Of a stretch of DNA of 64,000 nt, positions 3,001-26,036 are shown one piece after another (position 1 is the first letter of the stretch; each line of letters opens with the position of its first letter). The notes under the pieces are model-generated. The model searched no databases, was not told the DNA's origin, and saw only the letters and a program-made list of their open reading frames with translations. The stretch is from Bolinopsis microptera (Eukaryota; Ctenophora; Tentaculata; Lobata; Bolinopsidae): contig NC_087076.1 in NCBI RefSeq assembly GCF_026151205.1, positions 801,192 through 865,191 on the forward strand. Direction: 5' to 3'. The position numbers and the translations under genes were made by a program.

Positions 3001-3503
3001 CAAAAGTTCAGGTTCTGGGTAACTCTCTGTCAGCCATGACAACTAAAATGAGGAGAATATCCAGACCTTTTGATGAGTCTAATGAGTATCCTGAGTACCA
3101 GCGAGATTACATTAACGAGGTTAACGAGGAGTTGATGAACATTACTCCTGAGGTTATTAAGTTTGGTCTGCTTGTTGCGGCTGACACTCATGATAAGGAT
3201 TTCTGTTCTCAACTTGATGCTTACGGAAAGGAATGGGTAGATAAAATGATCAGCTTGTCAAATGCTCTGGAAATGATACCAGAGATGAGTAATAACAGCA
3301 AGGACGATGCAATGGAAGCTGTAAGTCTAGAGAGTGAAGAATTGAACGTAGAGCTTGATTCAGTGACAGTGGAACTTGAAGAACCGCCTGAATCTGCGCC
3401 GGTACACACAGACAAAGAGAGAAAACACAACCATCACCCTGAGGACCTCCACCAGCCAATCAGAGCTGCTGGTTACAGGCTAGTCCCCCTTTCTGTGCTT
3501 TCT

Positions 3504-3544
<41 letters not shown>

Positions 3545-6500
3545 ACTGTGGGTGGTAGCTGGTCACATGCTAGTCCCCCTTTCTGTGTTTTCTGGGGGGG
3601 GGGGGGGGGGGAGAGAGGGGGTACTGGGGGTGGTAGCTGGTTACAGGCTAGTCCTCCTTTCTATGCTTTCTGGGGGGGGGGGGGGAAGAGGGGGTACTGG
3701 GGGTGGTAGCTGGTTACAGGCTAGTCTCCTTTCTATGCTTTCTGGGGGGGGGGGGGGGAAGAGGGGGTACTGGGGGTGGTAGCTGGTACAGGCTAGTCCT
3801 CCTTTCTGTGCTTTCTGGGGGGGGGGAGAGGGGGTACTGGGGGTGGTAGCTGGTTACAGGCTAGTCCCTCTTTCTATGCTTTCTGGGGGGGGGGGGGGGG
3901 GGGGGGGGGGGGAGAGGGGGTACTGTGGGTGGTAGCTGGTCACATGCTAGTCCCCCTTTCTGTGTTTTCTGGGGGGGGGGGGAGAGAGGGGGTACTGGGG
4001 GTGGTAGCTGGTTACAGGCTAGTCCTCCTTTCTATGCTTTCTGGGGGGGGGGGGGAAGAGGGGGTACTGGGGGTGGTAGCTGGTTACAGGCTAGTCCTCC
4101 TTTCTATGCTTTCTGGGGGGGGGGGGGGGGGAAGAGGGGGTACTGGGGTGGTAGCTGGTTACAGGCTAGTCCTCCTTTCTATGCTTTCTGGGGGGGGGGG
4201 AAGAGGGGGGTACTGGGGGTGGTAGCTGGTTACAGGCTAGTCCTCCTTTCTATGCTTTCTGGGGGGGGGGGGGGGGGGAGAGAGGGGGTACTGGGGGTGG
4301 TAGCTGGTTACAGGCTAGTCCTCCTTTCTATGCTTTCTGGGGGGGGGGGGGGGAAGAGGGGGTACTGGGGGTGGTAGCTGGTTACAGGCTAGTCCTCCTT
4401 TCTATGCTTTCTGGGGGGGGGGGAAGAGGGGGTACTGGGGGTGGTAGCTGGTTACAGGCTAGTCCTCCTTTCTATGCTTTCTGGGGGGGGGGGGAGAGAG
4501 GGGGTACTGGGGGTGGTAGCTGGTTACAGGCTAGTCCTCCTTTCTATGCTTTCTGGGGGGGGGGGGGGAAGAGGGGGTACTGGGGGTGGTAGCTGGTTAC
4601 AGGCTAGTCCTCCTTTCTATGCTTTCTGGGGGGGGGGGGGGGGGGGGGGGGAGGAAGAGGGGGTACTGGGGGTGGTAGCTGGTTACAGGCTAGTCCTCCT
4701 TTCTATGCTTTCTGGGGGGGGGGGAAGAGGGGGTACTGGGGGTGGTAGCTGGTTACAGGCTAGTCCTCCTTTCTATGCTTTCTGGGGGGGGGGGGGAAGA
4801 GGGGGTACTGGGGGTGGTAGCTGGTTACAGGCTAGTCCTCCTTTCTATGCTTTCTGGGGGGGGGGGGGGAGAGAGGGGGTACTGTGGGTGGTAGCTGGTT
4901 ACATGCTAGTCCTCCTTTCTATGCTTTCTGGGGGGGGGGGGGAGAGAGGGGGTACTGTGGGTGGTAGCTGGTTACATGCTAGTCCTCCTTTCTGTGCTTT
5001 CTGGGGGGGGGGGGGGAGAGAGAGGGGGTACTGTGGGTGGTAGCTGGTCACAGGCTAGTCCCCCTTTCTGTGTTTTCTACTTGGCTATCTTAGTTAACAA
5101 GTTGTTACTTTAAAGTCACTTTAAAGTTGATAGCAAAATTTAAAAAGTGTGATGCTAGCTTGATTTGATAAGAATTGTTCAGGTTAGTACGGCAGGGAAC
5201 GATAATGGAGGAGGGGAATGAACTGAGGGAGATAAAGTCAATCACCACTAAGTTATGTGACTGTCTGCAAGTGCTCAGTTCAACGCACACTGATGTCAAT
5301 GAGAGGTTTCTACATGGTTTATACCTTTATAAATAGGCAATCACATTACTCCTGCTTCGAGTACAAAATGTAATGGTTAAAGGACAATCGTTGAGATATT
5401 ACTTTTAACAAAAAATCGAACGATTTGGCGTTTTAGAAGTTTAACAACAATAAGTAGCCCCCGGCCCCCCTAGTGTTACTCGGTATACCCCCCTCCCCCG
5501 GCCCCCTAGTGTTACTCGGTATACCCCCTCCCCCGGCCCCCTAATGTTACTCGGTTATACCCCCCCTCCCCCGGCCCCCTAGTGTTACTCGGTATACCCC
5601 CCCTCCCCCGGCCCCCCTAGTGTTACTCGGTATACCCCTCCCCCGGCCCCCCTAATGTTACTCGGTATACCCCCTCCCCCGGCCCTCTAGTGTTACTCGG
5701 TATACCCCCCCGGCCCCCTAGTGTTACTCGGTAAACCCCCCGGCCCGCCCTAGTGTTACTCGGTATACCCCCCCCCCCCCGGCCACCTAGTGTTACTCGG
5801 TATACCCCCTCCCCCGGCCCCCTAGTGTTACCCGGTATACCCCTCCCCCGGCCCCCTACTGTTACTCGGTATACCCCCCTCCCCCCGGCCCCCTAGTGTT
5901 ACTCGGTATACCCCCCTCCCCCGGCCCCCCCTAGTGTTACTCGGTATACCCCCTCCCCCGGCCCCCTAATGTTACTCGGTATACCCCCTCCCCCGGCCCC
6001 TCTAGTGTTACTCGGTATACCCACCCGGCCCCCTAGTGTTACTCGGTAAACCCCCCCCCCCCCCCGGCCCCCCTAGTGTTACTCGGTATACCCCCTCCCC
6101 CGGCCCCCTAGTGTTACTCGGTATACCCCCCTCCCCCGGCCCCCTAGTGTTACTCGGTATACCCCCCCTCCCCCGGCCCCCTAGTGTTACTCGGTATACC
6201 CCCTCCCCCGGCCCCCTAGTGTTACTCGGTATACCCCCTCCCCCGGCCCCCTAGTGTTACTCGGTATACCCCCTCCCCCGGCCCCCTAGTGTTACTCGGT
6301 ATACCCCCTCCCCCGGCCCCCTAGTGTTACTCGGTATACCCCCTCCCCCGGCCCCCTAGTGTTACTCGGTATACCCCCTCCCCCGGCCCCCCTAGTGTTA
6401 CTCGGTATACCCCCCTCCCCCGGCCCCCTAGTGTTACTCGGTATACCCCCTCCCCCGGCCCCCTAGTGTTACTCGGTATACCCCCTCCCCCGGCCCCCTA

Positions 6501-6579
6501 GTGTTACTCGGTATACCCCCTCCCCCGGCCCCCTAGTGTTACTCGGTATACCCCCCGGCCCCCTAGTGTTACTCGGTAT

Positions 6580-6618
<39 letters not shown>

Positions 6619-9600
6619 CCCCCTAGTGTTACTCGGTATACCCCCCTCAGGTATGAGATGGAGGACACAGTGGATCAGGTTAAAGGAACAGTAAACCAGA
6701 TTTTGCTGATGAGACCTGGTGATCTAGAGGATTCTGTGGAGGACTGGCTGCACTCCATCAACAGTGTTACATCTCATCTGGACACATTCCTTAAACCTCT
6801 CCTTGACATTGTCAGTTCTCCTAAAAACAAAGATGTGTTCTCCACGTCGGCAGAGAGGATAACTAAACTAGTGGAATCTGTCACTGAAATAACATCAGAT
6901 CTGCAACTTGGCGTGTATCTGAAGCTGATAACCAACGAGAAGGAGAGAGACGGGGTGGAGCTGGTCAATGTGACGCAGGATCACGTGAACAAGATGACAC
7001 CTGCGTTATGTGACGCTATACAAGTTGTCACTTCCAGACCTAATGACACCCTGCAGAGGACCAAGTTTGAAGCTATCAAATACCAATGGGCAACTAAGTT
7101 TAGACTTCTCAACATTGCAATAGGTGACATTTTGGGGCATCACAGCTCTTTCCCTGAGTTTGCAGACAGGAAGGATTGCTGGGTTGTTGAGGAGGACATG
7201 GAGAGATTGCTCACCTCAGTGTACCTCATATCAGATAAACTAATAGAGTGTGATTACAAGGACTTAGTGTTTAAACACATCAACAAGTTAAGAGAGCTGC
7301 AAGGTTCAATGAGCAGTGTTCATTTAATGGACCCAGCCCAGTACATGCTGCTAAAGACGGATATAACATTTGCAGTGTACTGTATCCACAGTGCGGTTAT
7401 TACTACATGTAGTGCGGTTACTGATCTAGTACCTGAGTTACCTGCTGACCTGGCGGACTCTATTGAGTGTGATCCTGGGACACTGTCTGATACAGCAGAC
7501 CATGCTATAGATATGATAACAACTATCTCAGACAGGGTGGAGGCTGAGGGAGGGGAGGCTGAGGACCAAGAGAAGGTTCAGAAGATGAGGATCCTATCTT
7601 CTTCCCTCATTGAGACACTGGTTCTTATATCTGATCAGCCGTCAACTGAGGTAATGTGAGATACGCTTCATTATCTTTATACTCTGCTCTCATAATTTTT
7701 GAAATCATTGTATTTTCAATTAATTGATAATGCGTTTTATTCGAGCTCGAACATAAATATTATGGTCCTCTAAATAAAACGTATCATGTTGACTGTTCAG
7801 GTGCGACTAGAATACAAACAGTGTTATGTAGACTGGCTGTGTCAAGTAATGGAACTGGCTAAAAAGACATCATTTGAAGCTCTCAAACCCCGGAACATAC
7901 TGATTGATGACGTCATTAAGAGTGATGACGTCATTAAGAGTGGTGACGTCATTAAGAGTGATGACGTCATTAAGAGTGGTGAGGTGATGCAGGATAACGG
8001 ACATGAGGAGGACATAGCAATAATGTACCGTGATGTTAACACTTGTAGTGGTAGTCCTGGCTCAGATAGGAATGAGGAGGACATAGCAATAATGTACCGT
8101 GATGTTAACACTTGTAGTGGTAGTCCTGGCTCAGATAGGAATGAGGAGCACATAGCAATAATGTACCGTGATGTTAACACTTGTAGTGGCAGTCCTGGCT
8201 CAGATAGGAATGAGGAGCACATAGCAATAATGTACCGTGATGTTAACACTTGTAGTGGCAGTCCTGGCTCAGATAGGAATGATATGAGATGCAGTACTTT
8301 TAGATCCGAACTATCTGGTAGGTTATCTTTATTTCTGTAATTACTAACTGTACACTCTTCAGACTACAACCCATGGCACAAGAAACTCGGAAATAAAGTT
8401 TCATTCCCTCGTCTCTGAGGTGAAATTTGGCAAAAAGATGAAATCTGAAAATGTCCTACCGGTAGGACATTTTCAAAATTTTCCTTTCATCAAAGTTTTC
8501 TCCGGATATTCGGCTTCCAGTACCTCGATGGTGACTTGTGTCACTCACACTGACCTCACTAATTGGTCACAGGTCAAAAATTCAGTCAAAACCGTTCAAT
8601 TTCGGTCAAGGAAACGGCACAAAAGCTACCAGGTCAGGTATAAGTGATACCTTACTTATGAAAGCGACTTATGTGCTTCTTTGAATTAAAGTTCTTCGAT
8701 TAAACTTGTCTCTGCAAACCCAAAGTTAATCCATGATTACCTTGTGTCAGGATCTCAGACGTTTTCGGAACTACACTTCTCAGAAGAAGAAGGAAACAAG
8801 ACCCCAGAACCAACTTTCAGTGCATCTCTTAATGGGAGGGAGGAGAGGGGGCGGAGCCATTATGTTAACTTGCAGTACCACCAGGGATACCAGCAGGAGG
8901 TAGGTTAACTTGCAGTACCACCAGGGATACCAGCAGGAGGTAGGTTAACTTGCAGTACCACCAGGGATACCAGCAGGAGGTAGGTTAACTTGCAGTACCA
9001 CCAGGGATACCAGCAGGAGGTAGGTTAACTTGCAGTACCACCAGGGATACCAGCAGGAGGTAGGTTAACTTGCAGTACCACCAGGGATACCAGCAGGAGG
9101 TAGGTTAACTTGCAGTACCACCAGGGATACCAGCAGGAGGTAGGTTAACTTGCAGTACCACCAGGGATACCAGCAGGAGGTAGGTTAACTTGCAGTACCA
9201 CCAGGGATACCAGCAGGAGGTAGGTTAACTTGCAGTACCACCAGGGATACCAGCAGGAGGTAGGTTAACTTGCAGTACCACCAGGGATACCAGCAGGAGG
9301 TAGGTTAACTTGCAGTACCACCAGGGATACCAGCAGGAGGTAGGTTAACTTGCAGTACCACCAGGGATACCAGCAGGAGGTAGGTTAACTTGCAGTACCA
9401 CCAGGGATACCAGCAGGAGGTAGGTTAACTTGCAGTACCACCAGGGATACCAGCAGGAGGTAGGTTAACTTGCAGTACCACCAGGGATACCAGCAGGAGG
9501 TAGGTTAACTTGCAGTACCACCAGGGATACCAGCAGGAGGTAGGTTAACTTGCAGTACCACCAGGGATACCAGCAGGAGGTAGGTTAACTTGCAGTACCA

Positions 9601-12600
9601 CCAGGGATACCAGCAGGAGGTAGGTTAACTTGCAGTACCACCAGGGATACCAGCAGGAGGTAGGTTAACTTGCAGTACCACCAGGGATACCAGCAGGAGG
9701 TAGGTTAACTTGCAGTACCACCAGGGATACCAGCAGGAGGTAGGTTAACTTGCAGTACCACCAGGGATACCAGCAGGAGGTAGGTTAACTTGCAGTACCA
9801 CCAGGGATACCAGCAGGAGGTAGGTTAACTTGCAGTACCACCAGGGATACCAGCAGGAGGTAGGTTAACTTGCAGTACCACCAGGGATACCAGCAGGAGG
9901 TAGGTTAACTTGCAGTACCACCAGGGATACCAGCAGGAGGTAGGTTAACTTGCAGTACCACCAGGGATACCAGCAGGAGGTAGGTTAACTTGCAGTACCA
10001 CCAGGGATACCAGCAGGAGGTAGGTTAACTTGCAGTACCACCAGGGATACCAGCAGGAGGTAGGTTAACTTGCAGTACCACCAGGGATACCAGCAGGAGG
10101 TAGGTTAACTTGCAGTACCACCAGGGATACCAGCAGGAGGTAGGTTAACTTGCAGTACCACCAGGGATACCAGCAGGAGGTAGGTTAACTTGCAGTACCA
10201 CCAGGGATACCAGCAGGAGGTAGGTTAACTTGCAGTACCACCAGGGATACCAGCAGGAGGTAGGTTAACTTGCAGTACCACCAGGGATACCAGCAGGAGG
10301 TAGGTTAACTTGCAGTACCACCAGGGATACCAGCAGGAGGTAGGTTAACTTGCAGTACCACCAGGGATACCAGCAGGAGGTAGGTTAACTTGCAGTACCA
10401 CCAGGGATACCAGCAGGAGGTAGGTTAACTTGCAGTACCACCAGGGATACCAGCAGGAGGTAGGTTAACTTGCAGTACCACCAGGGATACCAGCAGGAGG
10501 TAGGTTAACTTGCAGTACCACCAGGGATACCAGCAGGAGGTAGGTTAACTTGCAGTACCACCAGGGATACCAGCAGGAGGTAGGTTAACTTGCAGTACCA
10601 CCAGGGATACCAGCAGGAGGTAGGTTAACTTGCAGTACCACCAGGGATACCAGCAGGAGGTAGGTTAACTTGCAGTACCACCAGGGATACCAGCAGGAGG
10701 TAGGTTAACTTGCAGTACCACCAGGGATACCAGCAGGAGGTAGGTTAACTTGCAGTACCACCAGGGATACCAGCAGGAGGTAGGTTAACTTGCAGTACCA
10801 CCAGGGATACCAGCAGGAGGTAGGTTAACTTGCAGTACCACCAGGGATACCAGCAGGAGGTAGGTTAACTTGCAGTACCACCAGGGATACCAGCAGGAGG
10901 TAGGTTAACTTGCAGTACCACCAGGGATACCAGCAGGAGGTAGGTTAACTTGCAGTACCACCAGGGATACCAGCAGGAGGTAGGTTAACTTGCAGTACCA
11001 CCAGGGATACCAGCAGGAGGTAGGTTAACTTGCAGTACCACCAGGGATACCAGCAGGAGGTAGGTTAACTTGCAGTACCACCAGGGATACCAGCAGGAGG
11101 TAGGTTAACTTGCAGTACCACCAGGGATACCAGCAGGAGGTAGGTTAACTTGCAGTACCACCAGGGATACCAGCAGGAGGTAGGTTAACTTGCAGTACCA
11201 CCAGGGATACCAGCAGGAGGTAGGTTAACTTGCAGTACCACCAGGGATACCAGCAGGAGGTAGGTTAACTTGCAGTACCACCAGGGATACCAGCAGGAGG
11301 TAGGTTAACTTGCAGTACCACCAGGGATACCAGCAGGAGGTAGGTTAACTTGCAGTACCACCAGGGATACCAGCAGGAGGTAGGTTAACTTGCAGTACCA
11401 CCAGGGATACCAGCAGGAGGTAGGTTAACTTGCAGTACCACCAGGGATACCAGCAGGAGGTAGGTTAACTTGCAGTACCACCAGGGATACCAGCAGGAGG
11501 TAGGTTAACTTGCAGTACCACCAGGGATACCAGCAGGAGGTAGGTTAACTTGCAGTACCACCAGGGATACCAGCAGGAGGTAGGTTAACTTGCAGTACCA
11601 CCAGGGATACCAGCAGGAGGTAGGTTAACTTGCAGTACCACCAGGGATACCAGCAGGAGGTAGGTTAACTTGCAGTACCACCAGGGATACCAGCAGGAGG
11701 TAGGTTAACTTGCAGTACCACCAGGGATACCAGCAGGAGGTAGGTTAACTTGCAGTACCACCAGGGATACCAGCAGGAGGTAGGTTAACTTGCAGTACCA
11801 CCAGGGATACCAGCAGGAGGTAGGTTAACTTGCAGTACCACCAGGGATACCAGCAGGAGGTAGGTTAACTTGCAGTACCACCAGGGATACCAGCAGGAGG
11901 TAGGTTAACTTGCAGTACCACCAGGGATACCAGCAGGAGGTAGGTTAACTTGCAGTACCACCAGGGATACCAGCAGGAGGTAGGTTAACTTGCAGTACCA
12001 CCAGGGATACCAGCAGGAGGTAGGTTAACTTGCAGTACCACCAGGGATACCAGCAGGAGGTAGGTTAACTTGCAGTACCACCAGGGATACCAGCAGGAGG
12101 TAGGTTAACTTGCAGTACCACCAGGGATACCAGCAGGAGGTAGGTTAACTTGCAGTACCACCAGGGATACCAGCAGGAGGTAGGTTAACTTGCAGTACCA
12201 CCAGGGATACCAGCAGGAGGTAGGTTAACTTGCAGTACCACCAGGGATACCAGCAGGAGGTAGGTTAACTTGCAGTACCACCAGGGATACCAGCAGGAGG
12301 TAGGTTAACTTGCAGTACCACCAGGGATACCAGCAGGAGGTAGGTTAACTTGCAGTACCACCAGGGATACCAGCAGGAGGTAGGTTAACTTGCAGTACCA
12401 CCAGGGATACCAGCAGGAGGTAGGTTAACTTGCAGTACCACCAGGGATACCAGCAGGAGGTAGGTTAACTTGCAGTACCACCAGGGATACCAGCAGGAGG
12501 TAGGTTAACTTGCAGTACCACCAGGGATACCAGCAGGAGGTAGGTTAACTTGCAGTACCACCAGGGATACCAGCAGGAGGTAGGTTAACTTGCAGTACCA

Positions 12601-15600
12601 CCAGGGATACCAGCAGGAGGTAGGTTAACTTGCAGTACCACCAGGGATACCAGCAGGAGGTAGGTTAACTTGCAGTACCACCAGGGATACCAGCAGGAGG
12701 TAGGTTAACTTGCAGTACCACCAGGGATACCAGCAGGAGGTAGGTTAACTTGCAGTACCACCAGGGATACCAGCAGGAGGTAGGTTAACTTGCAGTACCA
12801 CCAGGGATACCAGCAGGAGGTAGGTTAACTTGCAGTACCACCAGGGATACCAGCAGGAGGTAGGTTAACTTGCAGTACCACCAGGGATACCAGCAGGAGG
12901 TAGGTTAACTTGCAGTACCACCAGGGATACCAGCAGGAGGTAGGTTAACTTGCAGTACCACCAGGGATACCAGCAGGAGGTAGGTTAACTTGCAGTACCA
13001 CCAGGGATACCAGCAGGAGGTAGGTTAACTTGCAGTACCACCAGGGATACCAGCAGGAGGTAGGTTAACTTGCAGTACCACCAGGGATACCAGCAGGAGG
13101 TAGGTTAACTTGCAGTACCACCAGGGATACCAGCAGGAGGTAGGTTAACTTGCAGTACCACCAGGGATACCAGCAGGAGGTAGGTTAACTTGCAGTACCA
13201 CCAGGGATACCAGCAGGAGGTAGGTTAACTTGCAGTACCACCAGGGATACCAGCAGGAGGTAGGTTAACTTGCAGTACCACCAGGGATACCAGCAGGAGG
13301 TAGGTTAACTTGCAGTACCACCAGGGATACCAGCAGGAGGTAGGTTAACTTGCAGTACCACCAGGGATACCAGCAGGAGGTAGGTTAACTTGCAGTACCA
13401 CCAGGGATACCAGCAGGAGGTAGGTTAACTTGCAGTACCACCAGGGATACCAGCAGGAGGTAGGTTAACTTGCAGTACCACCAGGGATACCAGCAGGAGG
13501 TAGGTTAACTTGCAGTACCACCAGGGATACCAGCAGGAGGTAGGTTAACTTGCAGTACCACCAGGGATACCAGCAGGAGGTAGGTTAACTTGCAGTACCA
13601 CCAGGGATACCAGCAGGAGGTAGGTTAACTTGCAGTACCACCAGGGATACCAGCAGGAGGTAGGTTAACTTGCAGTACCACCAGGGATACCAGCAGGAGG
13701 TAGGTTAACTTGCAGTACCACCAGGGATACCAGCAGGAGGTAGGTTAACTTGCAGTACCACCAGGGATACCAGCAGGAGGTAGGTTAACTTGCAGTACCA
13801 CCAGGGATACCAGCAGGAGGTAGGTTAACTTGCAGTACCACCAGGGATACCAGCAGGAGGTAGGTTAACTTGCAGTACCACCAGGGATACCAGCAGGAGG
13901 TAGGTTAACTTGCAGTACCACCAGGGATACCAGCAGGAGGTAGGTTAACTTGCAGTACCACCAGGGATACCAGCAGGAGGTAGGTTAACTTGCAGTACCA
14001 CCAGGGATACCAGCAGGAGGTAGGTTAACTTGCAGTACCACCAGGGATACCAGCAGGAGGTAGGTTAACTTGCAGTACCACCAGGGATACCAGCAGGAGG
14101 TAGGTTAACTTGCAGTACCACCAGGGATACCAGCAGGAGGTAGGTTAACTTGCAGTACCACCAGGGATACCAGCAGGAGGTAGGTTAACTTGCAGTACCA
14201 CCAGGGATACCAGCAGGAGGTAGGTTAACTTGCAGTACCACCAGGGATACCAGCAGGAGGTAGGTTAACTTGCAGTACCACCAGGGATACCAGCAGGAGG
14301 TAGGTTAACTTGCAGTACCACCAGGGATACCAGCAGGAGGTAGGTTAACTTGCAGTACCACCAGGGATACCAGCAGGAGGTAGGTTAACTTGCAGTACCA
14401 CCAGGGATACCAGCAGGAGGTAGGTTAACTTGCAGTACCACCAGGGATACCAGCAGGAGGTAGGTTAAAGTTAATCCATTATTCTATTTAAAATATATTT
14501 ATTGTAAGTCACTATGATTGTAAGGTCTTAAGGTAATTGTAATATATCCTTAGTAACTAGTACCTAGTACTTAGTAACTAACATTGTCCAGGGATCACAA
14601 GAAGAATACAGTGAAGAAGAAATGCCATTAAAAATAGAGGGAGACAGTGTACAGGGAGACAGTCTGCACGGTACAGACAGTCTGTTTGAGAGGAACAGTA
14701 CCCAGGAGGAGGAGGAGGGTGAGGGTGAGAGTGTAGGGTGAGGGTGAGGGTGAGGAGGAGGGTGAGGGTGAGAGTGTAGGGAGTAGCAGGTGCTCTACTC
14801 CTGTTATGATACACCCTCTTCAGTTGGAGTACTCAGAGGATCCCACCAACACGGTAATGGCGCTACTTAGTACTACTACTCATTATGCATATCAGTTAAC
14901 CTCAAGCAGTCCACATAATGAGTTTGGTTCACCTCAGTTTCATACCATGTGATGTAAACTTTATTGCAGGCTGTTCTAAGCGATATAGCTTCAGTGATGA
15001 GCGACCAAGAACCCACCACCGAGTCAACCGATACTGTCGACTCTTCAATAAGGGTACGGTATTCTTAGTAGCTTTTAAATTATGAACTCACTAAAACCCC
15101 CCCCCCCCCAACTAACTAACCAACCCCCACTAACTAACTAACTAACTTACTAACTAAGCCCTCCCTAATAAACTAAACCCCCCATAACTAACTCACTAAA
15201 CCCCCCCCCAACTAACTAACCAATCCCCACTAACTAACTAACTAACTTACTAACTAAGCCCTCCCTAACTAACTAAACCCCCCATAACTAACCAACCCCC
15301 ACTAACTAACTAACTAACTTACTAACTAAACCCTCCCTAATAAACTAAACCCCCCATAACTAACTCACTAAACCCCCCCCCCAACTAACTAACTAACTAA
15401 CTTACTAACTAAACCCTCCCTAATAAAACTAAACCCCCCCATAACTAACTCACTAAACCCCCCCCCCCCCCCAACTAACTAACCAACCCCCACTAATACT
15501 AACTAAACTATAACTTACGAACTAAACCCTCACTAAATAAACTAAACCCCCCATAAACTAACTACTAAACCCCCCCCCCCCCCCAACTAACTACCATATC

Positions 15601-18600
15601 CCCATAACTAACAAGTCTAACTTACTAACTAAGGCCTCCCTAACTAACTAAACCCCCAGTAGACAACCAACTCCCACTAACTAATGTAAGACTAACTTTA
15701 CTAACTAAACCTCCTAATTAAAAACTAACCCCTCCATACAACTCACCTAACCCCCCCCCCAAACTACTAACTCTAACTTAACTTTCCTAACTAATCCTCC
15801 CTAATAAACTATACCCCCGCTCCACATAATAATCTCACTTAAACCTCCCCCCCCCCCCCCCCCCCCCCGCCCCCCACCCCCCCCCCCCCCCGCCCCCCCC
15901 TCCCCGCCCCCCCCCCCCCCTCCCTCCCCCCCCCCCCCCCCTCCAACTAACTAAACCAGAACCCCCACTAACTAGATCTAAATAATCCTTACTAAACTAA
16001 ACCCTCCACTAATAAATAAACCCCCATAAACTAAACTCACTAAACCCCCCCCCCCCAACTAACTAAACCAACCCCTACTAACTAACTAACTAAATGGTAC
16101 TTATAAAGCATAAACCCTCCCTAATAAACTTAACCCCCCAGTAAACTAACAACTAAACCCCCTCCCCAACTAAATGCCTCTTAGACTATATCTTAGACTT
16201 TACTAACTATTAACCTCCCTAATAAACTAAAACCCCCCATAAACTAACTCACTAGAAACCCCCTCCCCCTAACTAACTAACAACCACCCACTAATAACTA
16301 ACTAACTTACGTAACAAGCGCCCTCTCCTAATAAACGTAAACCCCCCGATAAGCTAACTCATAAAACCCCCCCGCCCCCATCCCCCCCCCCCCCCCTCCC
16401 TCAATCTAACTTTAACCAACCCCACTAAATAAACTATACTAATTACTAAAGACTAAGCCCCCCTTTCCCTAACTATACTGTAAAACCCCTCCCATAACTA
16501 ACTAAACCCCCTAAAGTTATCTAACCCCCCTGACTAACCCCCAGCTCATTCATTATATATAACCACATTATAAATGGATTTCACGTTCTCCATTAGGGGA
16601 CCCCCCCCCCCCCTTCTCATTGTGACAAAATAAACTCATCACACTTTCAAAATAACAGTTAATTTTAGTGTAGAAATCAAAGGGTATTATCAGAATAAGT
16701 TAATTACAAAATTATTGGTTCATCTACTTAACTAACTTAGTTGTATCAAAAATTTAAATAACTCCCATTTCATAAGCTCAAAGTTTTTATGGTTACAAAT
16801 TACAGTAGAACCCCGATTAAACGTACAGTTTGGGGAGAAGGAAAATAGTTAGTCTTGTCACATGGTCACATGGTCACATGGTCACATGGTCACATGGTCA
16901 CATGGTCACATGGTCACATGGTCACATGGTCACATGGTGGTCACATGGTCACATGGTCACATGGTCATGTCACATGGTCACTACTAATGTTAATCACTTC
17001 CTAATTAGCCTCCTCTAATCTCCTCTTTATCTGCCCGATACTACCCTCTGTTAGGAGGGACTCTATCACTGCTTTGTCGATGGCATCACTCCCTACCCTC
17101 TCCTGAAAGTTAAATAGTAAATAGTGAAACTAACCCCTGTACTTGTCACTGAAACTGAGTCTTAAGAGGAACATAACCCCTGTACTTTGAGGGAGTTGAA
17201 GCGAGAAATTTACCTAAAATTTTTGCGAATGAGAAAGTGAATCGGAGTGAAATGACAAAGTGAATCAGAGTGAAATGATAAAGTGAATCAGAGTGAAATG
17301 AGTGTATCTTACTGCTGAAGATTTAGTTACTCACAATAACATAGTTGACCCCACTCTCCACCACGGTGAGACTCAGTGTGAGGCCCAGGTGTCGCACTAT
17401 GTCTCCAACAAATGCATACAATTCAGGACCTTCTATCGTATCGTCAGGGGTGCCCCCCCGCTTCCTACACCCCTGGTTCACGTTAGAATTGTAATGCGAC
17501 AAAATTGACTGAGATTATGGGATTAAGATTTAACGTGCGTTAACGTTGAAATGCTGGTAAAACAGGAGGGTAAAGTTACCTTGACATGTTTCTGGATGAA
17601 ATTTGACGAATTCCCATAAAAAGAGCATTTTCCCTAGTCACAAACCTACGTGATCATCAGAGAAAACCACACATATTGCAAAACTAATAAGAACTGCACG
17701 GGGATCTTCCGGATTTATTCCTTGACAATTGTTTATTTTTGATTGTCACTTTTTGGCGGAATCTTTTTTCCAGAAATTTATACTCCATTAACAAACCCAA
17801 ATCCCATAACTTACAACATTACCAAAACTACCCCCACAACCATACTAAACCCACCTTAAACACAAACCTCCTCTATACCCAAACACCCAAACCCCTAACA
17901 AACTCAAAACAAACCCCCACCCCCCCACCATATGATACCTCTTTCACATACTCTCACCCCCAACCCCCCACCCAACAAACCACCCTATCATCATCTCACA
18001 CACTCTTTATACCTAATAACATACTACCTTAATGGTAAGTACAACTTAACCACAATATAACACCAACTCAATAACAAACCACTTATATGATATATAAACC
18101 TGTCAGCAACACTACTACTACTAGTACTACAATGTTAGGTTATATAAAACAGCAAACACCTCGGCGGGTGTTATGTCCGTGCAGTCCTTCTTGAGAAATA
18201 GGTCCTTCATGAACTTGGAGAACTCCACGTACTCAAGGTAGCCGTTCTTATCTGTGTCATAATGGAACCAAACCTGGGAGAAATGTAGGTTACCATCGTT
18301 ACCACGCATGGTCCGTGCAATATTCACTTGGTAGAAGTGTAACTACTAGGGTTGCGAAAAAGGGGAGGAATGTGTAAAGGGTGGTAACCTATGGTAACCA
18401 TGGTAACCTATGGTAACCTGTTGTAACCCCATTACCTGCATGTGTAAAGGGTGGTAACCTGTGGTAACCTATGGTAACCTGTTGTAACCCCCATTACCTG
18501 CATGAACTCGGTACTGGTGAGTATCTTGTTTCTGAGGTTCCTAAAGTCCACTCCCTCCCCTGACCCTCCTCGGCACAACATCAGACACTTCATCTGCCAC

Positions 18601-20590
18601 CTTATACCAACACTTACTTTAGTACCTACTTCTCGCGGAATAAAGAACGGAAAGTTCTGCAAGAGAGAGGGGACCCCCCCCTCCCCCCCACACAAGAGAC
18701 AAGTATTTAACGTGTTTTGAATACTAAAACTCAGAATAAGACGGATTGAGAGAGAGAAGTGACGAAATTATAGTAGCTGTTTAAAGCTCCTTTGCTACGT
18801 AAACTAAAATATCTTTAAAGAAAGATAGAACAAGAAATATGGCCGTATTTCTTGAGTGGAATCAGTGGATGGCCGCTCAATTTTCCGATCCAAAATGCAG
18901 ATGGTGTGTAATGGTGTGTAATGGTGTGTAATGGTGTGTAATGGTGTGTAATGGTGTGTAATGGTGTTTAATGGTGTGTAATGGTGTGTAATGGTGTGTA
19001 ATGGTGTGTAATGGTGTGTAATGGTGTGTAATGGTGTGTAATGGTGTGTAATGGTGTGTAATGGTGTGTAATGGTGTGTAATGGTGTGTAATGGTGTGTA
19101 ATGGTGTGTAATGGTGTGTAATGGTGTGTAATGGTGTGCAGGTAGTGTTGTGTAATGGTGTGTAATGGTGTGTAATGGTGTGTAATGGTGTGTGATGGTG
19201 TGTAATGGTGTGTAATGGTGTGTAATGGTGTGTAATGGTGTGTAATGGTGTGTAATGGTGTGTAATGGTGTGTAATGGTGTGTAATGGTGTGTAATGGTG
19301 TGTAATGGTGTGTAATGGTGTCTCATAACCATGGTAACCTGTGAGATGGTGTCTCATATCATATAACATATCGAGCAATTCTATTTATGCGACCTGATGC
19401 TTATAGCTTATGCAAGCTGACATGGATCTGTACATAATACTGACGAAATAAAGTGCAAAATATTTACATATCCGCCACTAGACTATATCTTCCGTGCATG
19501 GTGAAAATTGACATTTTGCTTGATCAGTTTGGCGTCGCGAACCAACAGTAACCAATCCAGAATATCGCGCAAAATAACTTTGCGGATATTACCATAGCAA
19601 CTAAACGACCAGCGACAACAGCGACAAAGAGCGAGGCGAACAAACTTGCGCGGACGCAATCTACCATGAGTCATGAATCGGGGTAAAATAGTAAATATCT
19701 TATATTTAAAAGTAGTCGTGACTTGATTTAATTGAATTAGCCGGTAAATACCTCTTATTAAACCATACAAGCAGCTTGTTATAAAACCTGATACCCGTCG
19801 CTCTGAGATCTTGGGTTCCATATTGATGAATTAAACATTTAGCACTTGCAGTTAAGTTAAACACTTAACACTTGAATAAACTGAATTACCTACACATTTC
19901 CACTTATCTTATTGGTGCTAATTATAGTTAATTATTATAGATAATTATTAGGGTTATCGAATAGTTCGGAAAATATCAACCAAATATACGGTATTTGGTA
20001 GTATTTGGTAGTATATATCTGGTATTCGGTTACATAATAGCGGATACTATCATATACCAAATATGCAGTGAAAAACAAACGAATGTCAAGTGAAAAAAGA
20101 AACTAAGCACCATTAAATTAATTCGTATAATCTAATATAATAACGATGGTAGCCTAAAGTAAGTTTAACGTTATGATTGAAAGCTAAGTGATCATGTAAA
20201 TGACATAATATTGGCATATTGCCAATATTGCGTCAGCCGCTTATTACTGTCACATTCCTTTGGAGTCTTTCTTCTTTGGCACAAAACACATATTTTGGAC
20301 TAATTTTGGTTTCTTTCGTTAAAAAACAAGCCATTATTAAACCAGTCTTCATTTTGTATAAATATGGTTAATTGTATAGTTTTAAATTTGGTAGAATATT
20401 GTTTGTATAGATACAGTAGATACAGGAACATGTATATAATAATAGTTTGAACCCCCCCCCCCCCTCAGATGCTAGAAGAGGAGTTAGCTCCCTGGGAGGT
20501 GACACACAACAGTCTGTTAGCCACCACCAAGATACTAGTACAACAGTTCACTCTTGTAAGGGACACTGTAGTAGCTCAACCCAACACTAG
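27..20590 (+). CDS. Giant vinculin/alpha-catenin-family protein, ten exons, 3' end not in window
   Basis: Exons: 27-77, 364-504, 621-about 3471, 5173 (or 5183)-5305, 6651-7650, 7801-8317, 8751-8899, 14592-14853, 14970-15053 and 20469-20590. All junctions use GT-AG and agree in phase, except that the exon 3 to 4 junction is provisional and exon 8 carries a frame-breaking duplication. Family members link actin to adhesion sites through bundles of alpha helices. The segment near 1340-1960 aligns by eye with the central repeat shared by vinculin and alpha-catenin (FKQHANRLI, then GPKIIACALS, then NEWSKVVSRLLALID). Exon 10 resembles the start of the vinculin/catenin tail. The coding length in view (over 1,750 residues) far exceeds vinculin (about 1,066) or alpha-catenin (about 906), because extra bundle units lie in exons 3, 5 and 6. 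The start at base 27 has a strong context (caccATGG), but the frame is open to base 1, so it may be internal. The orthologue is uncertain. Confidence 0.75.
364..504 (+). CDS. Vinculin-like gene, exon 2
   Basis: Phase 0 to phase 0, 47 codons, starting VRSLTKDLNLAGSDLM and ending NLTVMK at AAG|gtattg. The acceptor (ctatgcag) has a weak pyrimidine tract. The protein is helical with heptad-like leucines, as expected of an N-terminal bundle. A run of C lies in the intron just after it (about 520-537). Confidence 0.6.
621..3471 (+). CDS. Vinculin-like gene, exon 3: main bundle region plus three added repeat units
   Basis: This very long exon (about 950 codons) starts after attatttcag. Bases 621-1330 encode N-terminal helical bundles and 1340-1960 the conserved vinculin/catenin central repeat. 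Three consecutive units of about 122-125 residues follow, starting near 2210, 2584 and 2950. Each opens with a related phrase (LADLITTAMNGE, NGLISAATSGD, EQLISSAKSGN) and contains a W-centred helix (RHWADSVIVL, AQWQELYLQL, KEWVDKMISL). Two of the three also have an x-TP-x-V helix (LTPSVNDAA, ITPEVIKFG). The 3' boundary is uncertain. A donor at 3472 (CTG|gttaca) is the sequence copied in every unit of the following array; an alternative strong donor is GCT|gtaagt at 3321. Without splicing, the frame would run into polyglycine encoded by the G-rich repeat, which is implausible. Confidence 0.75.
3479..5075 (+). repeat. G-rich intronic minisatellite, about 60-75 bp unit
   Basis: About 22 units of a sequence containing ggtagctggttacaggctag, a pyrimidine stretch, then a run of 10-35 G followed by aagaggggg or agagaggggg. 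Units vary mainly in G-run length. The array begins at the end of exon 3 and fills the intron up to about 5075. G runs on the plus strand would be G-quadruplex-prone in the transcript. Long polyglycine open frames across it are artefacts of the repeat. Confidence 0.9.
5173..5305 (+). CDS. Vinculin-like gene, small exon 4
   Basis: An island of coding sequence between two tandem arrays. It reads LVRQGTIMEEGNELREIKS and so on, through KLCDCLQVLSSTHTDVNER. The donor after base 5305 (GAGAG|gtttct) leaves two bases that exactly complete with the first G of exon 5 to give R-Y-E-M-E-D. The acceptor is either gataag|AA at 5173 (matching a phase-1 end of exon 3) or gttcag|G at 5183 (which needs phase 2). 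Confidence 0.55.
5456..6649 (+). repeat. C-rich intronic minisatellite, about 35-bp unit
   Basis: More than 30 units of a sequence containing tagtgttactcggtatac followed by C-rich runs (ccccctcccccggccccc). Length varies in the C tracts. The last unit ends in cccccctcag, which is itself the 3' splice site of exon 5, so the repeat supplies the polypyrimidine tract. Only about 150 bp of ordinary intron sequence separates it from exon 4. Confidence 0.92.
6651..7650 (+). CDS. Vinculin-like gene, exon 5: further helical bundles
   Basis: Starts in phase 2 after the repeat-derived acceptor and ends in phase 0 at GAG|gtaatg, giving 333 codons. It contains another family-type pair: a TP-containing helix (MTPALCDAIQVVTSR, near 6990) followed by a W-centred helix (YQWATKFRLLNIAIGD, near 7080). 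It ends with a helix that reads into exon 6. Codon use and hydrophobic spacing match exon 3, so this is part of the same protein. Confidence 0.8.
7801..8317 (+). CDS. Vinculin-like gene, exon 6: last bundle helix and repeat-rich linker
   Basis: Phase 0 start after gactgttcag, phase 1 end at TCTG|gtaggt. The first part (VRLEYKQCYVDWLCQVMELA) is a W-centred helix continuing exon 5. Next come four 18-bp repeats encoding variants of DDVIKS (7906-7977) and four 69-bp repeats encoding EEDIAIMYRDVNTCSGS and so on (about 8004-8279), which form a low-complexity linker. The 18-bp unit contains the palindrome TGACGTCA each time. Confidence 0.75.
7906..7977 (+). repeat. Four 18-bp coding repeats, each with TGACGTCA
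   Basis: Four tandem copies of gatgacgtcattaagagt or a one-base variant. They keep the reading frame (six codons each). The core octamer is identical to a full cAMP-response element, but its place inside a coding exon gives no evidence of regulatory use. Confidence 0.9.
8004..8279 (+). repeat. Four 69-bp in-frame coding repeats
   Basis: Four near-identical 69-bp copies (23 codons each) in exon 6, differing at a few sites (GAGGAC versus GAGCAC, AGT versus GGC). The copies are recent and preserve frame, so repeat number may vary between alleles. Confidence 0.92.
8318..8750 (+). other. Intron 6 with a perfect palindrome and a repeat fragment
   Basis: Contains a possible alternative exon (8363-8418, stop TGA at 8416), a 30-bp perfect palindrome centred at 8460/8461, and an 18-bp match (gtacctcgatggtgactt) to bases near 50,138, suggesting a dispersed repeat. 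Direct joining of exon 6 to 8751 keeps phase, so the alternative exon is not needed. Confidence 0.5.
8751..8899 (+). CDS. Vinculin-like gene, exon 7: acidic linker
   Basis: The acceptor cttgtgtcag and phase 1 match the end of exon 6. It reads SQTFSELHFSEEEGNKTPEP and so on to VNLQYHQGYQQE, ending in phase 0 at GAG|gtaggt. The last 36 bases of this exon, plus its donor, are the first copy of the 40-bp satellite that follows. Confidence 0.65.
8864..14468 (+). repeat. 40-bp satellite, about 140 apparently identical copies
   Basis: A 5.6-kb array of a 40-bp unit (gttaacttgcag, then taccaccaggga, then taccagcaggag, then gtag). By eye every copy is identical. The unit is made of the 3' end of exon 7, its 5' splice site (caggag|gtaggt) and a few intron bases. 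It also contains ttgcag, an acceptor-like sequence. Read as coding it stops at gtaggttaa and shifts frame every unit, so it is intronic. Confidence 0.97.
14592..14853 (+). CDS. Vinculin-like gene, exon 8: acidic linker with a frame-breaking duplication
   Basis: Starts in phase 0 after cattgtccag, reads GSQEEYSEEEMPLKIEGDS and so on into a GEGES repeat, and meets TGA at 14739. A 43-bp tandem duplication (14721-14763 against 14764 on) shifts the frame; the second copy reads on cleanly as VGSSRCSTPVMIHPLQLE and so on to the donor ACG|gtaatg in phase 0. Without the extra 43 bp the exon would be 73 codons and fully open. It may be a real null allele, a somatic or cell-line variant, or an assembly error. 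Confidence 0.6.
14970..15053 (+). CDS. Vinculin-like gene, exon 9
   Basis: 28 codons, phase 0 at both ends, between ttattgcag and AGG|gtacgg. It reads AVLSDIASVMSDQEPTTEST and so on: a short Ser/Thr/Asp-rich linker like the exons before it, consistent with the flexible region before the tail of vinculin. Confidence 0.6.
15088..16550 (+). repeat. Degenerate CTAA/C-run repeat in intron 9
   Basis: A long, irregular array of aactaact-type tetramers alternating with C runs (units around taactcactaaaccccccc). It starts about 35 bases after the donor of exon 9 and becomes irregular after 15,480, with a C-only stretch at 15,846-15,941. The irregularity may partly be sequencing error in homopolymers. 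Confidence 0.85.
16858..16985 (+). repeat. 8-bp tandem repeat (tcacatgg)
   Basis: About 15 tandem copies of tcacatgg, with two interruptions. It lies in the same intron, just after a short sequence (cagtagaaccccgattaaacg, near 16,803) that resembles a Tc1/pogo-type transposon end. Confidence 0.9.
17001..17102 (-). CDS. Minus-strand terminal exon, unknown protein
   Basis: The minus strand shows the acceptor aactttcag followed by an open frame of 33 codons to TAG: ERVGSDAIDKAVIESLLTEG, then SIGQIKRRLEEAN. The helix VIESLLTEGSIGQIKRRL resembles the short N-terminal helix of FOP/OFD1-type centrosomal proteins, but there it precedes the LisH motif, whereas here it follows. No firm family assignment. 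It is in phase 0 with the exon at 17335-17432. Confidence 0.4.
   Translation of the reverse strand, partial: ERVGSDAIDKAVIESLLTEGSIGQIKRRLEEAN
17335..17432 (-). CDS. Minus-strand exon with a LisH-like stretch
   Basis: Between acceptor gatag and donor ATT|gtgagt on the minus strand, the frame reads GPELYAFVGDIVRHLGLTLS and then LTVVESGVNYVI (phase 1 start, phase 0 end). The spacing of hydrophobic residues and the E-S-G ending resemble a LisH dimerisation motif. It joins in phase to the terminal exon at 17001-17102. Whether both belong to the EF-hand gene upstream on this strand is not established. Confidence 0.4.
18127..18593 (-). CDS. EF-hand calbindin/secretagogin-like exons (18498-18593 and 18127-18273), antisense in intron 9
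   Basis: Two minus-strand exons join in phase 0. The first ends RNKILTSTEFMQ at CAG|gtaatg. The second begins, after ttctcccag, with VWFHYDTDKNGYLEYVEFSK and continues FMKDLFLKKD to a TAG at 18127. The loop D-T-D-K-N-G-Y-L-E-Y-V-E has all the EF-hand calcium ligands. The context (EFMQ-W helix, loop, KDLF helix) closely matches the hexa-EF-hand family of calbindin, calretinin and secretagogin. Only one complete EF-hand is visible, so it is partial: other exons may lie at higher coordinates, or the copy may be a fragment. A donor-like GAG|gtgttt inside the last exon could replace the stop. These proteins buffer calcium in the cytosol. Confidence 0.6.
18840..19830 (+). repeat. Dispersed repeat copy (related to 28,100-28,640)
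   Basis: The sequence on either side of the 10-bp array matches segments near 28,158 (gtggatggccgctcaatt) and 28,460-28,630 (cgacctgat, gatctgt, catggtgaaa). The minus strand has an open frame of 112 codons (19,483-19,821) rich in Arg and Cys with no recognised domain. It is likely transposon-derived. Confidence 0.45.
18901..19321 (+). repeat. 10-bp tandem repeat (atggtgtgta)
   Basis: About 42 near-perfect copies of atggtgtgta with a short interruption near 19,140. Open frames on the minus strand (His-Tyr-Thr-Pro-Leu repeats) are by-products of the repeat. Confidence 0.95.
19831..20468 (+). other. Intron 9, AT-rich, no feature recognised
   Basis: AT-rich sequence ending in the C-rich polypyrimidine tract and acceptor (cccctcag) of exon 10. 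A short run of related tatttggta words occurs near 19,985-20,065. Nothing coding was seen. Confidence 0.6.
20469..20590 (+). CDS. Vinculin-like gene, exon 10: start of tail domain
   Basis: Follows cccccctcag in phase 0 and reads MLEEELAPWEVTHNSLLATT, then KILVQQFTLVRDTVVAQ. The pattern (E-E-x3-W-x4-N-x-hydrophobic-hydrophobic-A-x-x-K) matches the first tail helices of vinculin (ARKWSSKGNDIIAAAKRM) and alpha-catenin (SKWDDSGNDIIVLAKQM). This ties the downstream exons to the vinculin family. It ends in phase 2 at ACTAG|gtcagt. The rest of the tail is not found: the intron contains an array and then a gap. A weak candidate at 26,176 (after cacttgcag) would stop within four codons. Confidence 0.7.
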
Positions 20591-20600
20591 GTCAGTTTAC

Positions 20601-21397
20601 TAGTTAGCAGGGAGGGTTTCATTATATTTAGCAGGGAGGGTTTCATTATATTTAGCAGGGAGGGTTTCATCATATTTAGCAGGGAGGGTTTCATCATATT
20701 TAGCAGGGAGGGTTTCATCATATTTAGCAGGGAGGGTTTCATTATGTCATATTTAGCAGGGAGGGTTCCATCATATTTAGCAGGGAGGGTTTCATCATAT
20801 TTAGCAGGGAGGGTTTCATCATATTTAGCAGGGAGGGTTTCATCATATCATATTTAGCAGGGAGGGTTTCATCATATCATATTTAGCAGGGAGGGTTTCA
20901 TCATATTTAGCAGGGAGGGTTTCATCATATTTAGCAGGGAGGGTTTCTTCATATTTAGCAGGGAGGGTTTCATTATATCATATTTAGCAGGGAGGGTTTC
21001 ATCATATTTAGCAGGGAGGGTTTCATCATATTTAGCAGGGAGGGGTTCATCATATCATATTTAGCAGGGAGGGTTTCATCATATTTAGCAGGGAGGGTTT
21101 CATTATGCCATATTTAGCAGGGAGAGTTTCATCATATTTAGCGGGGAGGGTTTCATTATGCCATATTTAGCAGGGAGGGGTTCATCATATCATATTTAGC
21201 AGGGAGGGTTTCATCATATTTAGCAGGGAGGGGTTCATCATATCATATTTAGCAGGGAGGGTTTCATTATATCATATTTAGCAGGGAGGGTTTCATTATG
21301 CCATATTTAGCAGGGAGGGTTTCATTATATCATATTTAGCAGGGAGGGTTTCATCATATCATATTTAGCAGGGAGGGTTTCATCATATCATATTTTT
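20601..21397 (+). repeat. 24-bp minisatellite (ttagcagggagggtttcat)
   Basis: About 33 copies of a 19-24 bp unit (catatttagcagggaggg, then tttcatcata) with small length and base variants. It starts about 10 bases after the donor of exon 10 and runs into the N gap. Confidence 0.93.
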
Positions 21398-21400
21398 GCA

Positions 21401-21500
21401 NNNNNNNNNNNNNNNNNNNNNNNNNNNNNNNNNNNNNNNNNNNNNNNNNNNNNNNNNNNNNNNNNNNNNNNNNNNNNNNNNNNNNNNNNNNNNNNNNNNN
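21401..21500. other. Assembly gap, 100 N
   Basis: Exactly 100 N, probably a placeholder of unknown true length, between two tandem arrays. The end of the vinculin-like gene is probably lost here or lies in an unrecognised place downstream. Confidence 0.98.
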
Positions 21501-24500: not shown

Positions 24501-26036
24501 ATTCTGTGCTGGTTTGAGTGTGGGGGATAGTGATGAGGATTCTGTGCTGGTTTGAGTGTGGGGGATAGTGATGAGGATTCTGTGCTGGTTTGAGTGTGGG
24601 GGATAGTGATGAGGATTCTGTGCTGGTTTGAGTGTGGGGGATAGTGATGAGGATTCTGTGCTGGTTTGAGTGTGGGGGATAGTGATGAGGATTCTGTGCT
24701 GGTTTGAGTGTGGGGGATAGTGATGAGGATTCTGTGCTGGTTTGAGTGTGGGGGATAGTGATGAGGATTCTGTGCTGGTTTGAGTGTGGGGGATAGTGAT
24801 GAGGATTCTGTGCTGGTTTGAGTGTGGGGGATAGTGATGAGGATTCTGTGCTGGTTTGAGTGTGGGGGATAGTGATGAGGATTCTGTGCTGGTTTGAGTG
24901 TGGGGGATAGTGATGAGGATTCTGTGCTGGTTTGAGTGTGGGGGATAGTGATGAGGATTCTGTGCTGGTTTGAGTGTGGGGGATAGTGATGAGGATTCTG
25001 TGCTGGTTTGAGTGTGGGGGATAGTGATGAGGATTCTGTGCTGGTTTGAGTGTGGGGGATAGTGATGAGGATTCTGTGCTGGTTTGAGTGTGGGGGATAG
25101 TGATGAGGATTCTGTGCTGGTTTGAGTGTGGGGGATAGTGATGAGGATTCTGTGCTGGTTTGAGTGTGGGGGATAGTGATGAGGATTCTGTGCTGGTTTG
25201 AGTGTGGGGGATAGTGATGAGGATTCTGTGCTGGTTTGAGTGTGGGGGATAGTGATGAGGATTCTGTGCTGGTTTGAGTGTGGGGGATAGTGATGAGGAT
25301 TCTGTGCTGGTTTGAGTGTGGGGGATAGTGATGAGGATTCTGTGCTGGTTTGAGTGTGGGGGATAGTGATGAGGATTCTGTGCTGGTTTGAGTGTGGGGG
25401 ATAGTGATGAGGATTCTGTGCTGGTTTGAGTGTGGGGGATAGTGATGAGGATTCTGTGCTGGTTTGAGTGTGGGGGATAGTGATGAGGATTCTGTGCTGG
25501 TTTGAGTGTGGGGGATAGTGATGAGGATTCTGTGCTGGTTTGAGTGTGGGGGATAGTGATGAGGATTCTGTGCTGGTTTGAGTGTGGGGGATAGTGATGA
25601 GGATTCTGTGCTGGTTTGAGTGTGGGGGATAGTGATGAGGATTCTGTGCTGGTTTGAGTGTGGGGGATAGTGATGAGGATTCTGTGCTGGTTTGAGTGTG
25701 GGGGATAGTGATGAGGATTCTGTGCTGGTTTGAGTGTGGGGGATAGTGATGAGGATTCTGTGCTGGTTTGAGTGTGGGGGATAGTGATGAGGATTCTGTG
25801 CTGGTTTGAGTGTGGGGGATAGTGATGAGGATTCTGTGCTGGTTTGAGTGTGGGGGATAGTGATGAGGATTCTGTGCTGGTTTGAGTGTGGGGGATAGTG
25901 ATGAGGATTCTGTGCTGGTTTGAGTGTGGGGGATAGTGATGAGGATTCTGTGCTGGTTTGAGTGTGGGGGATAGTGATGAGGATTCTGTGCTGGTTTGAG
26001 TGTGGGGGATAGTGATGAGGATTCTGTGCTGGTTTG
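21501..26036 (+). repeat. 38-bp minisatellite, about 93 clean copies after a degraded start
   Basis: From about 22,505 to 26,036 a 38-bp unit (gagtgtgggggatagtgatg, then aggattctgtgctggttt) repeats with no visible variation. Bases 21,501-22,500 hold the same unit heavily corrupted by substitutions and deletions, as in unpolished single-read sequence next to a gap. A 1,318-codon minus-strand open frame covers the array only because the unit lacks stops in its frames. Confidence 0.95.

What the first reader, a model, noticed from the sequence alone, without database searches (positions are those of the whole stretch)
3472..21400. Five introns of one gene are filled by tandem arrays that touch splice sites
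The G-rich array starts at the end of exon 3, the C-rich array ends exactly at the acceptor of exon 5, the 40-bp array starts within exon 7 and its donor, the CTAA/C array starts about 35 bases after exon 9, and the 24-bp array starts about 10 bases after exon 10. Five unrelated arrays abutting splice sites in a single gene suggests that expansion is linked to transcription or splicing (for example R-loops or replication slippage at exposed single strands), or that repeats are tolerated only there.
Basis: seen in the sequence. Interest (0 to 1): 0.75.

Follow-up and report, generated by a model that had tools for sequence, protein, structure and literature searches.

The report
Tandem repeats spanning splice junctions
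In what is probably a comb-jelly genome, short tandem duplications that include the end of an exon and its splice site have repeatedly grown into long, variable repeat arrays inside introns, so the repeats in this gene touch splice sites partly because introns are short and partly because the duplications often began across the splice junction.

Summary
The five arrays are real. They fill five of about ten introns of an alpha-catenin/vinculin-family gene. A second, noisier copy of the locus (contig C36, probably the other haplotype) has the same arrays at very different lengths, plus three junction-spanning arrays that are single- or low-copy in the window: 1 vs 65 copies across an acceptor, 2 vs 14 across a donor, 1 vs 3 across the exon-10 donor.

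I tested the enrichment outside the window on 80 introns of kinesin and myosin genes. Random placement already puts about a third of arrays within 50 bp of a splice site, because introns are short. There is still an excess at donors: 8 of 20 arrays start in the donor zone (3.3 expected, p about 0.007), and none end in the acceptor zone. Several units are the last 12-30 exon bases plus the start of the donor, the same design as the window's 40-bp array. Genome-wide, donor words occur in tandem far more than control words, and 11 of 15 such array edges read lie within 20 nt of a likely splice site.

Best reading: microhomology-mediated tandem duplications across exon-intron junctions, tolerated because the original donor stays first. 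R-loops get no support. The splicing outcome is untested, and why donors are favoured is open.

The parts
622..3320 (+). Exon 3 (or its safe part) of the host gene, alpha-catenin/vinculin family
   Evidence: Pfam Vinculin E 5.5e-45; Catenin alpha-2 E 5.4e-22 in PDB
3469..5078 (+). G-rich array, period about 72, 21 copies; intron 3, possibly overlapping the exon 3 end
   Evidence: TRF; sequence; alternative donor GTAAGT at 3321
5458..6650 (+). C-rich array, period 35, 32 copies, supplying the pyrimidine tract and AG of the exon 5 acceptor
   Evidence: TRF; CCTCAG at 6645-6650
6651..7650 (+). Exon 5, vinculin-family sequence
   Evidence: Pfam Vinculin E 8.3e-8, below the curated cut-off
8754..8899 (+). 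Exon 7 (inferred); its last 36 nt are the first copy of the exonic part of the 40-bp unit
   Evidence: open frame ending VNLQYHQGYQQE
8864..14468 (+). 40-bp array, 140 copies; unit = 36 nt of exon 7 + GTAG; every unit carries a donor (GAG|GTAGG) and an acceptor-like TTAACTTGCAG
   Evidence: TRF; GTTAA at both duplication ends, a 5-bp microhomology; 144 matches in the genome, all listed ones here
15097..16550 (+). CTAA/C array, 43 nt after the exon 9 donor (15054)
   Evidence: TRF; about 0.15 kb in C36
17084..17126 (-). Single copy of the 43-bp segment spanning the acceptor of the last exon of the nested antisense EF-hand gene; 65 copies in C36
   Evidence: sequence
18424..18504 (-). Two copies of a segment spanning the donor (CATGCAG|GTAATG) of an antisense EF-hand exon; 14 copies in C36
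   Evidence: EF-hand Pfam
20469..20590 (+). Exon 10; its 3' part with the donor is present 3 times in C36, once here
   Evidence: C36 35960, 36063, 36158
20604..21400 (+). 24-bp array, 13 nt after the exon 10 donor, cut by an N gap
   Evidence: TRF; 23 vs 73 exact units in C36

Best explanation
The arrays are minisatellites that start as small tandem duplications with little homology at the breakpoints (replication slippage, template switching or microhomology-mediated end joining) and then grow by slippage or unequal exchange. In this genome many founding duplications span an exon-intron junction, most often the donor, so each unit carries a copy of the exon end plus the splice site. They are tolerated because the original, 5'-most donor remains attached to the intact exon, and all extra copies lie downstream inside the intron and are removed with it. 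Duplications across an acceptor are rarer, presumably because upstream copies of the AG would be used first. Short ancestral introns bring the other arrays near splice sites by default. Shown: the anatomy, the donor excess in a sample, the tandem donor words genome-wide, differences between two copies of one locus. Inferred: the duplication mechanism, use of the first donor, the selective reason for the asymmetry. Not explained: why duplications are commoner at donors than inside introns.
For: 80 introns called from Pfam-defined kinesin/myosin exons. 8 of 20 arrays start in the donor zone (-60 to +20) vs 3.3 expected, p=0.007; none end in the acceptor zone. Units: C12 33 bp x52 = 26 nt exon + GTAAGTG; C2 35 bp x25 = 30 nt exon + GTAAG; two-copy cases of 38 and 53 bp. 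Sense donor core GTRAG in 7 of 22 units, antisense in 1. Tandem triples: AGGTAAGT 1380 vs 12 reversed (single words 10772 vs 7977); AGGTGAGT 1294 vs 185; mutated AGCTAAGT 218 (singles 7112); acceptor TTTTCAGG 350 vs 95 (singles 21745 vs 8953). Of 15 array edges read, 8 lie at a coding-looking exon's donor and 3 within 20 nt of an acceptor, with Pfam support for some (reprolysin, sushi, dynein, methyltransferase, copine). Two copies of the locus differ at three junction-spanning arrays.
Against: The sample is small (20 arrays) and uses inferred splice sites without RNA. Taking donor-crossing arrays alone, 5 vs 2.4 expected, p=0.08. Triple counts are inflated by copy number; from the listed rows the array-level excess is roughly 3-10 fold. 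Four of the 15 edges read (two copies of one dispersed family, two arrays about 90-105 nt from a likely acceptor) are not at a splice site. Other sources of intronic arrays exist, such as a transposon with tandem-repeat ends. Tolerance alone predicts no excess over intron interior.
Confidence: 0.55

Rival explanations
1. No link to splicing. Tandem arrays arise anywhere; coding exons purge them, introns are short before expansion, so an array edge falls near a splice site by default. The gene simply lies in a repeat-rich stretch.
For: Array introns are often only 60-220 nt without their arrays; uniform placement predicts 34% within 50 bp. Interior arrays and transposon arrays exist.
Against: Donor zone 8 vs 3.3 expected, acceptor zone 0, although this null treats exons as permissive; units containing exon end plus donor; excess of donor words in tandem over mutated and reversed words.
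Confidence: 0.27
2. The splice donor is a mutational hot spot: transcription or co-transcriptional splicing (R-loops, exposed single strands, pausing) makes duplications at donors more frequent.
For: An excess at donors relative to intron interior, which tolerance alone does not explain.
Against: No consistent G/C skew on the sense strand (11 positive, 8 negative); breakpoints vary widely around the donor.
Confidence: 0.1
3. The arrays are selected for: many donors in a row bind U1 and help long introns, or the 40-bp units act as in-frame 24-nt micro-exons (YHQGYQQE) that vary protein length.
For: Each 40-bp unit has an acceptor-like and a donor sequence 24 nt apart, in frame with exon 7; arrays keep intact donors.
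Against: Arrays are almost identical copies, so intact donors show recency, not selection; copy number differs widely between two copies of the locus; no RNA seen.
Confidence: 0.05
4. Assembly artefact: arrays or their positions are errors.
For: N gap and degenerate sequence at 21401-22500; C36 is noisy inside arrays.
Against: Same arrays at the same positions in a second contig; same design at many other loci.
Confidence: 0.03

Closest known systems
Intron gain by tandem genomic duplication at AGGT (reviewed in PMC3443670)
   Same: A short tandem duplication that contains a splice-site sequence changes intron structure.
   Different: Here an existing intron is lengthened: the donor is duplicated, the acceptor lies outside the array (about 100-1800 nt away), and copies run to 25-140.
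Dual-specific splice sites in tandem-repeat genes, e.g. UBC and VCX3A (PMC10809524)
   Same: Splice sites lie inside each tandem unit.
   Different: There intron length is a multiple of the coding repeat and one AGGT serves as donor and acceptor; here the arrays are mostly intronic, the acceptor lies outside the array and the donor is what is repeated in most cases.
Ctenophore genome repeats: 13% of Hormiphora californensis called tandem repeat, raised intronic indel rate (PMC8527503)
   Same: Probably the same phylum; abundant length-variable tandem repeats; nested genes.
   Different: In the passages read, that paper does not tie repeats to splice junctions.
Intronic minisatellites (VNTRs) in general
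   Same: Unit sizes of 10-100 bp, homogeneous copies, length variation between copies of a locus.
   Different: Units commonly include the exon end and donor.

Membership tests
Intronic minisatellite / VNTR | Tandem units of about 10-100 bp | tested here: met
   TRF
Intronic minisatellite / VNTR | Length differs between alleles | tested here: met
   Window vs C36; that C36 is an allele is inferred from synteny and 98% flank identity
Intron gain by tandem genomic duplication | Donor in one copy, acceptor in another, intron length a multiple of the unit | tested here: not met
   Donor-crossing arrays end 98-1794 nt before the acceptor in the kinesin introns and 123 nt before exon 8 in the window
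Intron gain by tandem genomic duplication | Intron absent in relatives | not testable with these tools
   No other eukaryote genome is held
Dual-specific splice-site repeat introns | Same AGGT used as donor and as acceptor in RNA | not testable with these tools
   No RNA data
Introner or mobile element | Similar units dispersed at many loci | tested here: not met
   40-bp unit: 144 genome matches, all those listed in this array, which TRF gives 140 copies; units at other loci are unrelated. Exceptions: one transposon, one dispersed array family
R-loop-driven expansion | G-rich sense strand | tested here: not met
   11 positive, 8 negative skew among 20 arrays

The most novel reading that the evidence does not exclude
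Splice donors in this lineage are true hot spots for tandem duplication, linked to splicing or transcription, so that whole arrays of working donor sites accumulate and lengthen introns genome-wide; some arrays may act as donor banks or micro-exon banks.
Probability: 0.12. Interest if true: 0.8.

Novelty: new variant of a known kind. Interest (0 to 1): 0.52.

Why it matters
Intron lengthening is usually attributed to transposons and to slow insertion and deletion (own knowledge). Junction-spanning duplications that expand into arrays of splice donors would be a fast, polymorphic route, with the start states visible between haplotypes. It would also give natural experiments on how a cell chooses among tens of identical donors in a row, and on why donors and acceptors differ in tolerance.

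Tried and rejected
R-loop reading: tested by sense-strand skew, no support. Donor conservation across copies as a sign of selection: arrays too homogeneous to tell. Kinesin paralogue pair with a 122 vs 1062-nt intron: the extra sequence is a transposon-like insertion with a 9-bp target duplication and tandem-repeat ends, not a junction duplication. A recalled resemblance to diphthamide synthase for the exon at C1:15829236: no hit in the PDB or in Pfam, not used. Literature searches for arrays of splice donors in introns found no such report in the held library, which is not a full search.

Full report
WHERE IT LIES. The window is G000:C5:801192-865191 of a 265-Mb genome in 232 contigs; the gene hits fall on contigs C1 to C13, and those whose length was shown are 15-26 Mb. 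That size and pattern match the comb jelly Bolinopsis microptera, listed as 265 Mb in PMC11797021, a paper which also reports that nearly all unplaced scaffolds of the related Mnemiopsis were alternative haplotypes. The species name is an inference; the tools do not give it. The host gene encodes an alpha-catenin/vinculin-family protein (Pfam Vinculin E 5.5e-45; Catenin alpha-2 E 5.4e-22 in PDB). An EF-hand gene lies antisense in its intron 9; nested genes of this kind are common in a related ctenophore (PMC8527503).

THE OBSERVATION. All five arrays exist and lie where described. Two points need care. The exon 3 boundary is uncertain: a GTAAGT at 3321 would put the G-rich array 148 nt into the intron. 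The 24-bp array runs into an N gap. The 40-bp array is the clearest: its first copy is the last 36 nt of exon 7 plus GTAG, the first four intron bases. GTTAA stands both at the exonic start of the array and at its far end, just after the last donor, which gives a 5-bp microhomology for the founding duplication.

A SECOND COPY OF THE LOCUS. Contig C36 (51.7 kb) carries the same gene, the same arrays in the same order and the same nested gene, with 98% identity in the 3.5-kb flank. It is most simply the other haplotype, but it is noisy inside the arrays of its first 28 kb, so only its clean part is used for counting. There, three arrays differ in a telling way (sequence). A 43-bp segment across the acceptor of the last EF-hand exon is single in the window and present 65 times in C36. 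A segment across an EF-hand donor is present 2 and 14 times. The 3' part of exon 10 with its donor is present once and three times. Such junction-spanning duplications are therefore recent, if C36 is an allele.

IS IT MORE THAN CHANCE? I took kinesin and myosin genes as a sample chosen without regard to repeats, because their exons are defined by Pfam matches. Joining consecutive exon matches by frame, profile continuity and splice-site score gave 87 introns, 80 of them well supported, median about 260 nt. TRF found 20 arrays of at least 60 bp in 18 introns. If arrays are born uniformly in these introns, 34% would start within 50 bp of a splice site; 10 of 20 do. So proximity as such is a weak signal. 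The asymmetry is stronger: 8 of 20 start in the donor zone (-60 to +20) against 3.3 expected (p=0.007), and none end in the matching acceptor zone. Restricting to arrays that actually cross the donor weakens it (5 vs 2.4, p=0.08). The zone limits were set after seeing the list of arrays, so the p-values are somewhat optimistic.

ANATOMY. Donor-anchored units repeat one design: 26 nt exon + GTAAGTG (52 copies), 30 nt exon + GTAAG (25 copies), two-copy founders of 38 and 53 bp, and one starting exactly at the donor. In the two-copy founders the shared bases at the breakpoints are only about 1 nt, as in slippage or end-joining products (my reading).

GENOME-WIDE. Three copies of AGGTAAGT spaced by 12-42 nt occur 1380 times against 12 for the reversed word, although the single words differ only 1.35-fold. 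AGGTGAGT gives 1294 vs 185, the mutated word AGCTAAGT 218 (single count), an acceptor word 350 vs 95 (single counts 21745 vs 8953). These are matches, not arrays. Counting distinct arrays in the rows listed gives about 0.2-0.5 arrays per Mb for donor words and about 0.05 per Mb for the mutated and acceptor words, so the real excess is about 3-10 fold. I then read the edges of these arrays. Of 15 edges, 8 sit at the donor of a coding-looking exon in the same orientation and 3 within 20 nt of the acceptor of a gene on the other strand; 4 are not at a splice site. Pfam supports several of the exons, some only weakly; about half of the eight donor exons rest on an open frame alone. Because these arrays were chosen by a donor word, this shows that such arrays are mostly splice-site arrays, not how common splice-site arrays are among all arrays.

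HOW IT MOST LIKELY WORKS. Small duplications with little homology arise across exon-intron junctions and inside introns. When a donor is duplicated, the first donor stays next to the intact exon and the rest becomes intron, so the mRNA can stay normal. When an acceptor is duplicated, upstream copies of the AG come first and the mRNA is more likely to be spoiled. That would explain donors over acceptors. It does not by itself explain donors over intron interior, and I have no evidence that settles this. Sense-strand G/C skew does not point to R-loops.

WHAT IS KNOWN. The closest described cases are intron gain by tandem duplication at AGGT (PMC3443670) and dual-specific splice sites in tandem-repeat genes (PMC10809524). 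Neither fits: here existing introns grow and the acceptor lies outside the array. High tandem-repeat content and intronic indel variation are known for a related comb jelly (PMC8527503). I did not find arrays of splice donors described in the held library.

Noticed in passing
16986-18770, minus strand: EF-hand gene nested antisense in intron 9 of the host gene; an 8-bp GTCACATG array lies just beyond its last exon.
   Followed up: partly
7905-8282: Coding tandem repeats in exon 6, both in frame: 18 bp x4.3 and 69 bp x4; the 69-bp core was not found exactly in the noisy C36 copy.
   Followed up: partly
21401-26037: N gap followed by a 38-bp array whose first 1 kb is degenerate and the rest nearly perfect, which looks like uncorrected sequence at a contig edge; no exact copy of this unit in C36.
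   Followed up: partly
G000:C36 39822-50755 (L024): 62-bp array of more than 160 nearly identical copies, about 11 kb; TRF does not list it in the window.
   Followed up: no
G000:C36 28868-29260 (L012 8868-9260): About 390-bp element with inverted ends (GGGGGGGAGCCAAGTGGAT...) inserted between copies of the 43-bp acceptor-spanning array.
   Followed up: no
L066 (G000:C13:5067950-5070650), the 1062-nt intron: Transposon-like insertion with 9-bp target duplication and tandem repeats in its inverted ends, absent from a paralogous 122-nt intron.
   Followed up: partly
L083 (C1:884550-885290): In-frame partial tandem duplication inside a dynein heavy-chain exon, next to a donor-spanning array.
   Followed up: no
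L086, L087, L090, L078, L081: Arrays upstream of acceptors carry CTCAC or CTTAC, which fit the branch-point pattern yUnAy; possibly repeated branch points.
   Followed up: no
L076, L077 (C1:37650, C1:762100): Same 32-bp AGGTAAGT array with similar flanks at two distant places, without an obvious exon; a dispersed repeat family.
   Followed up: no
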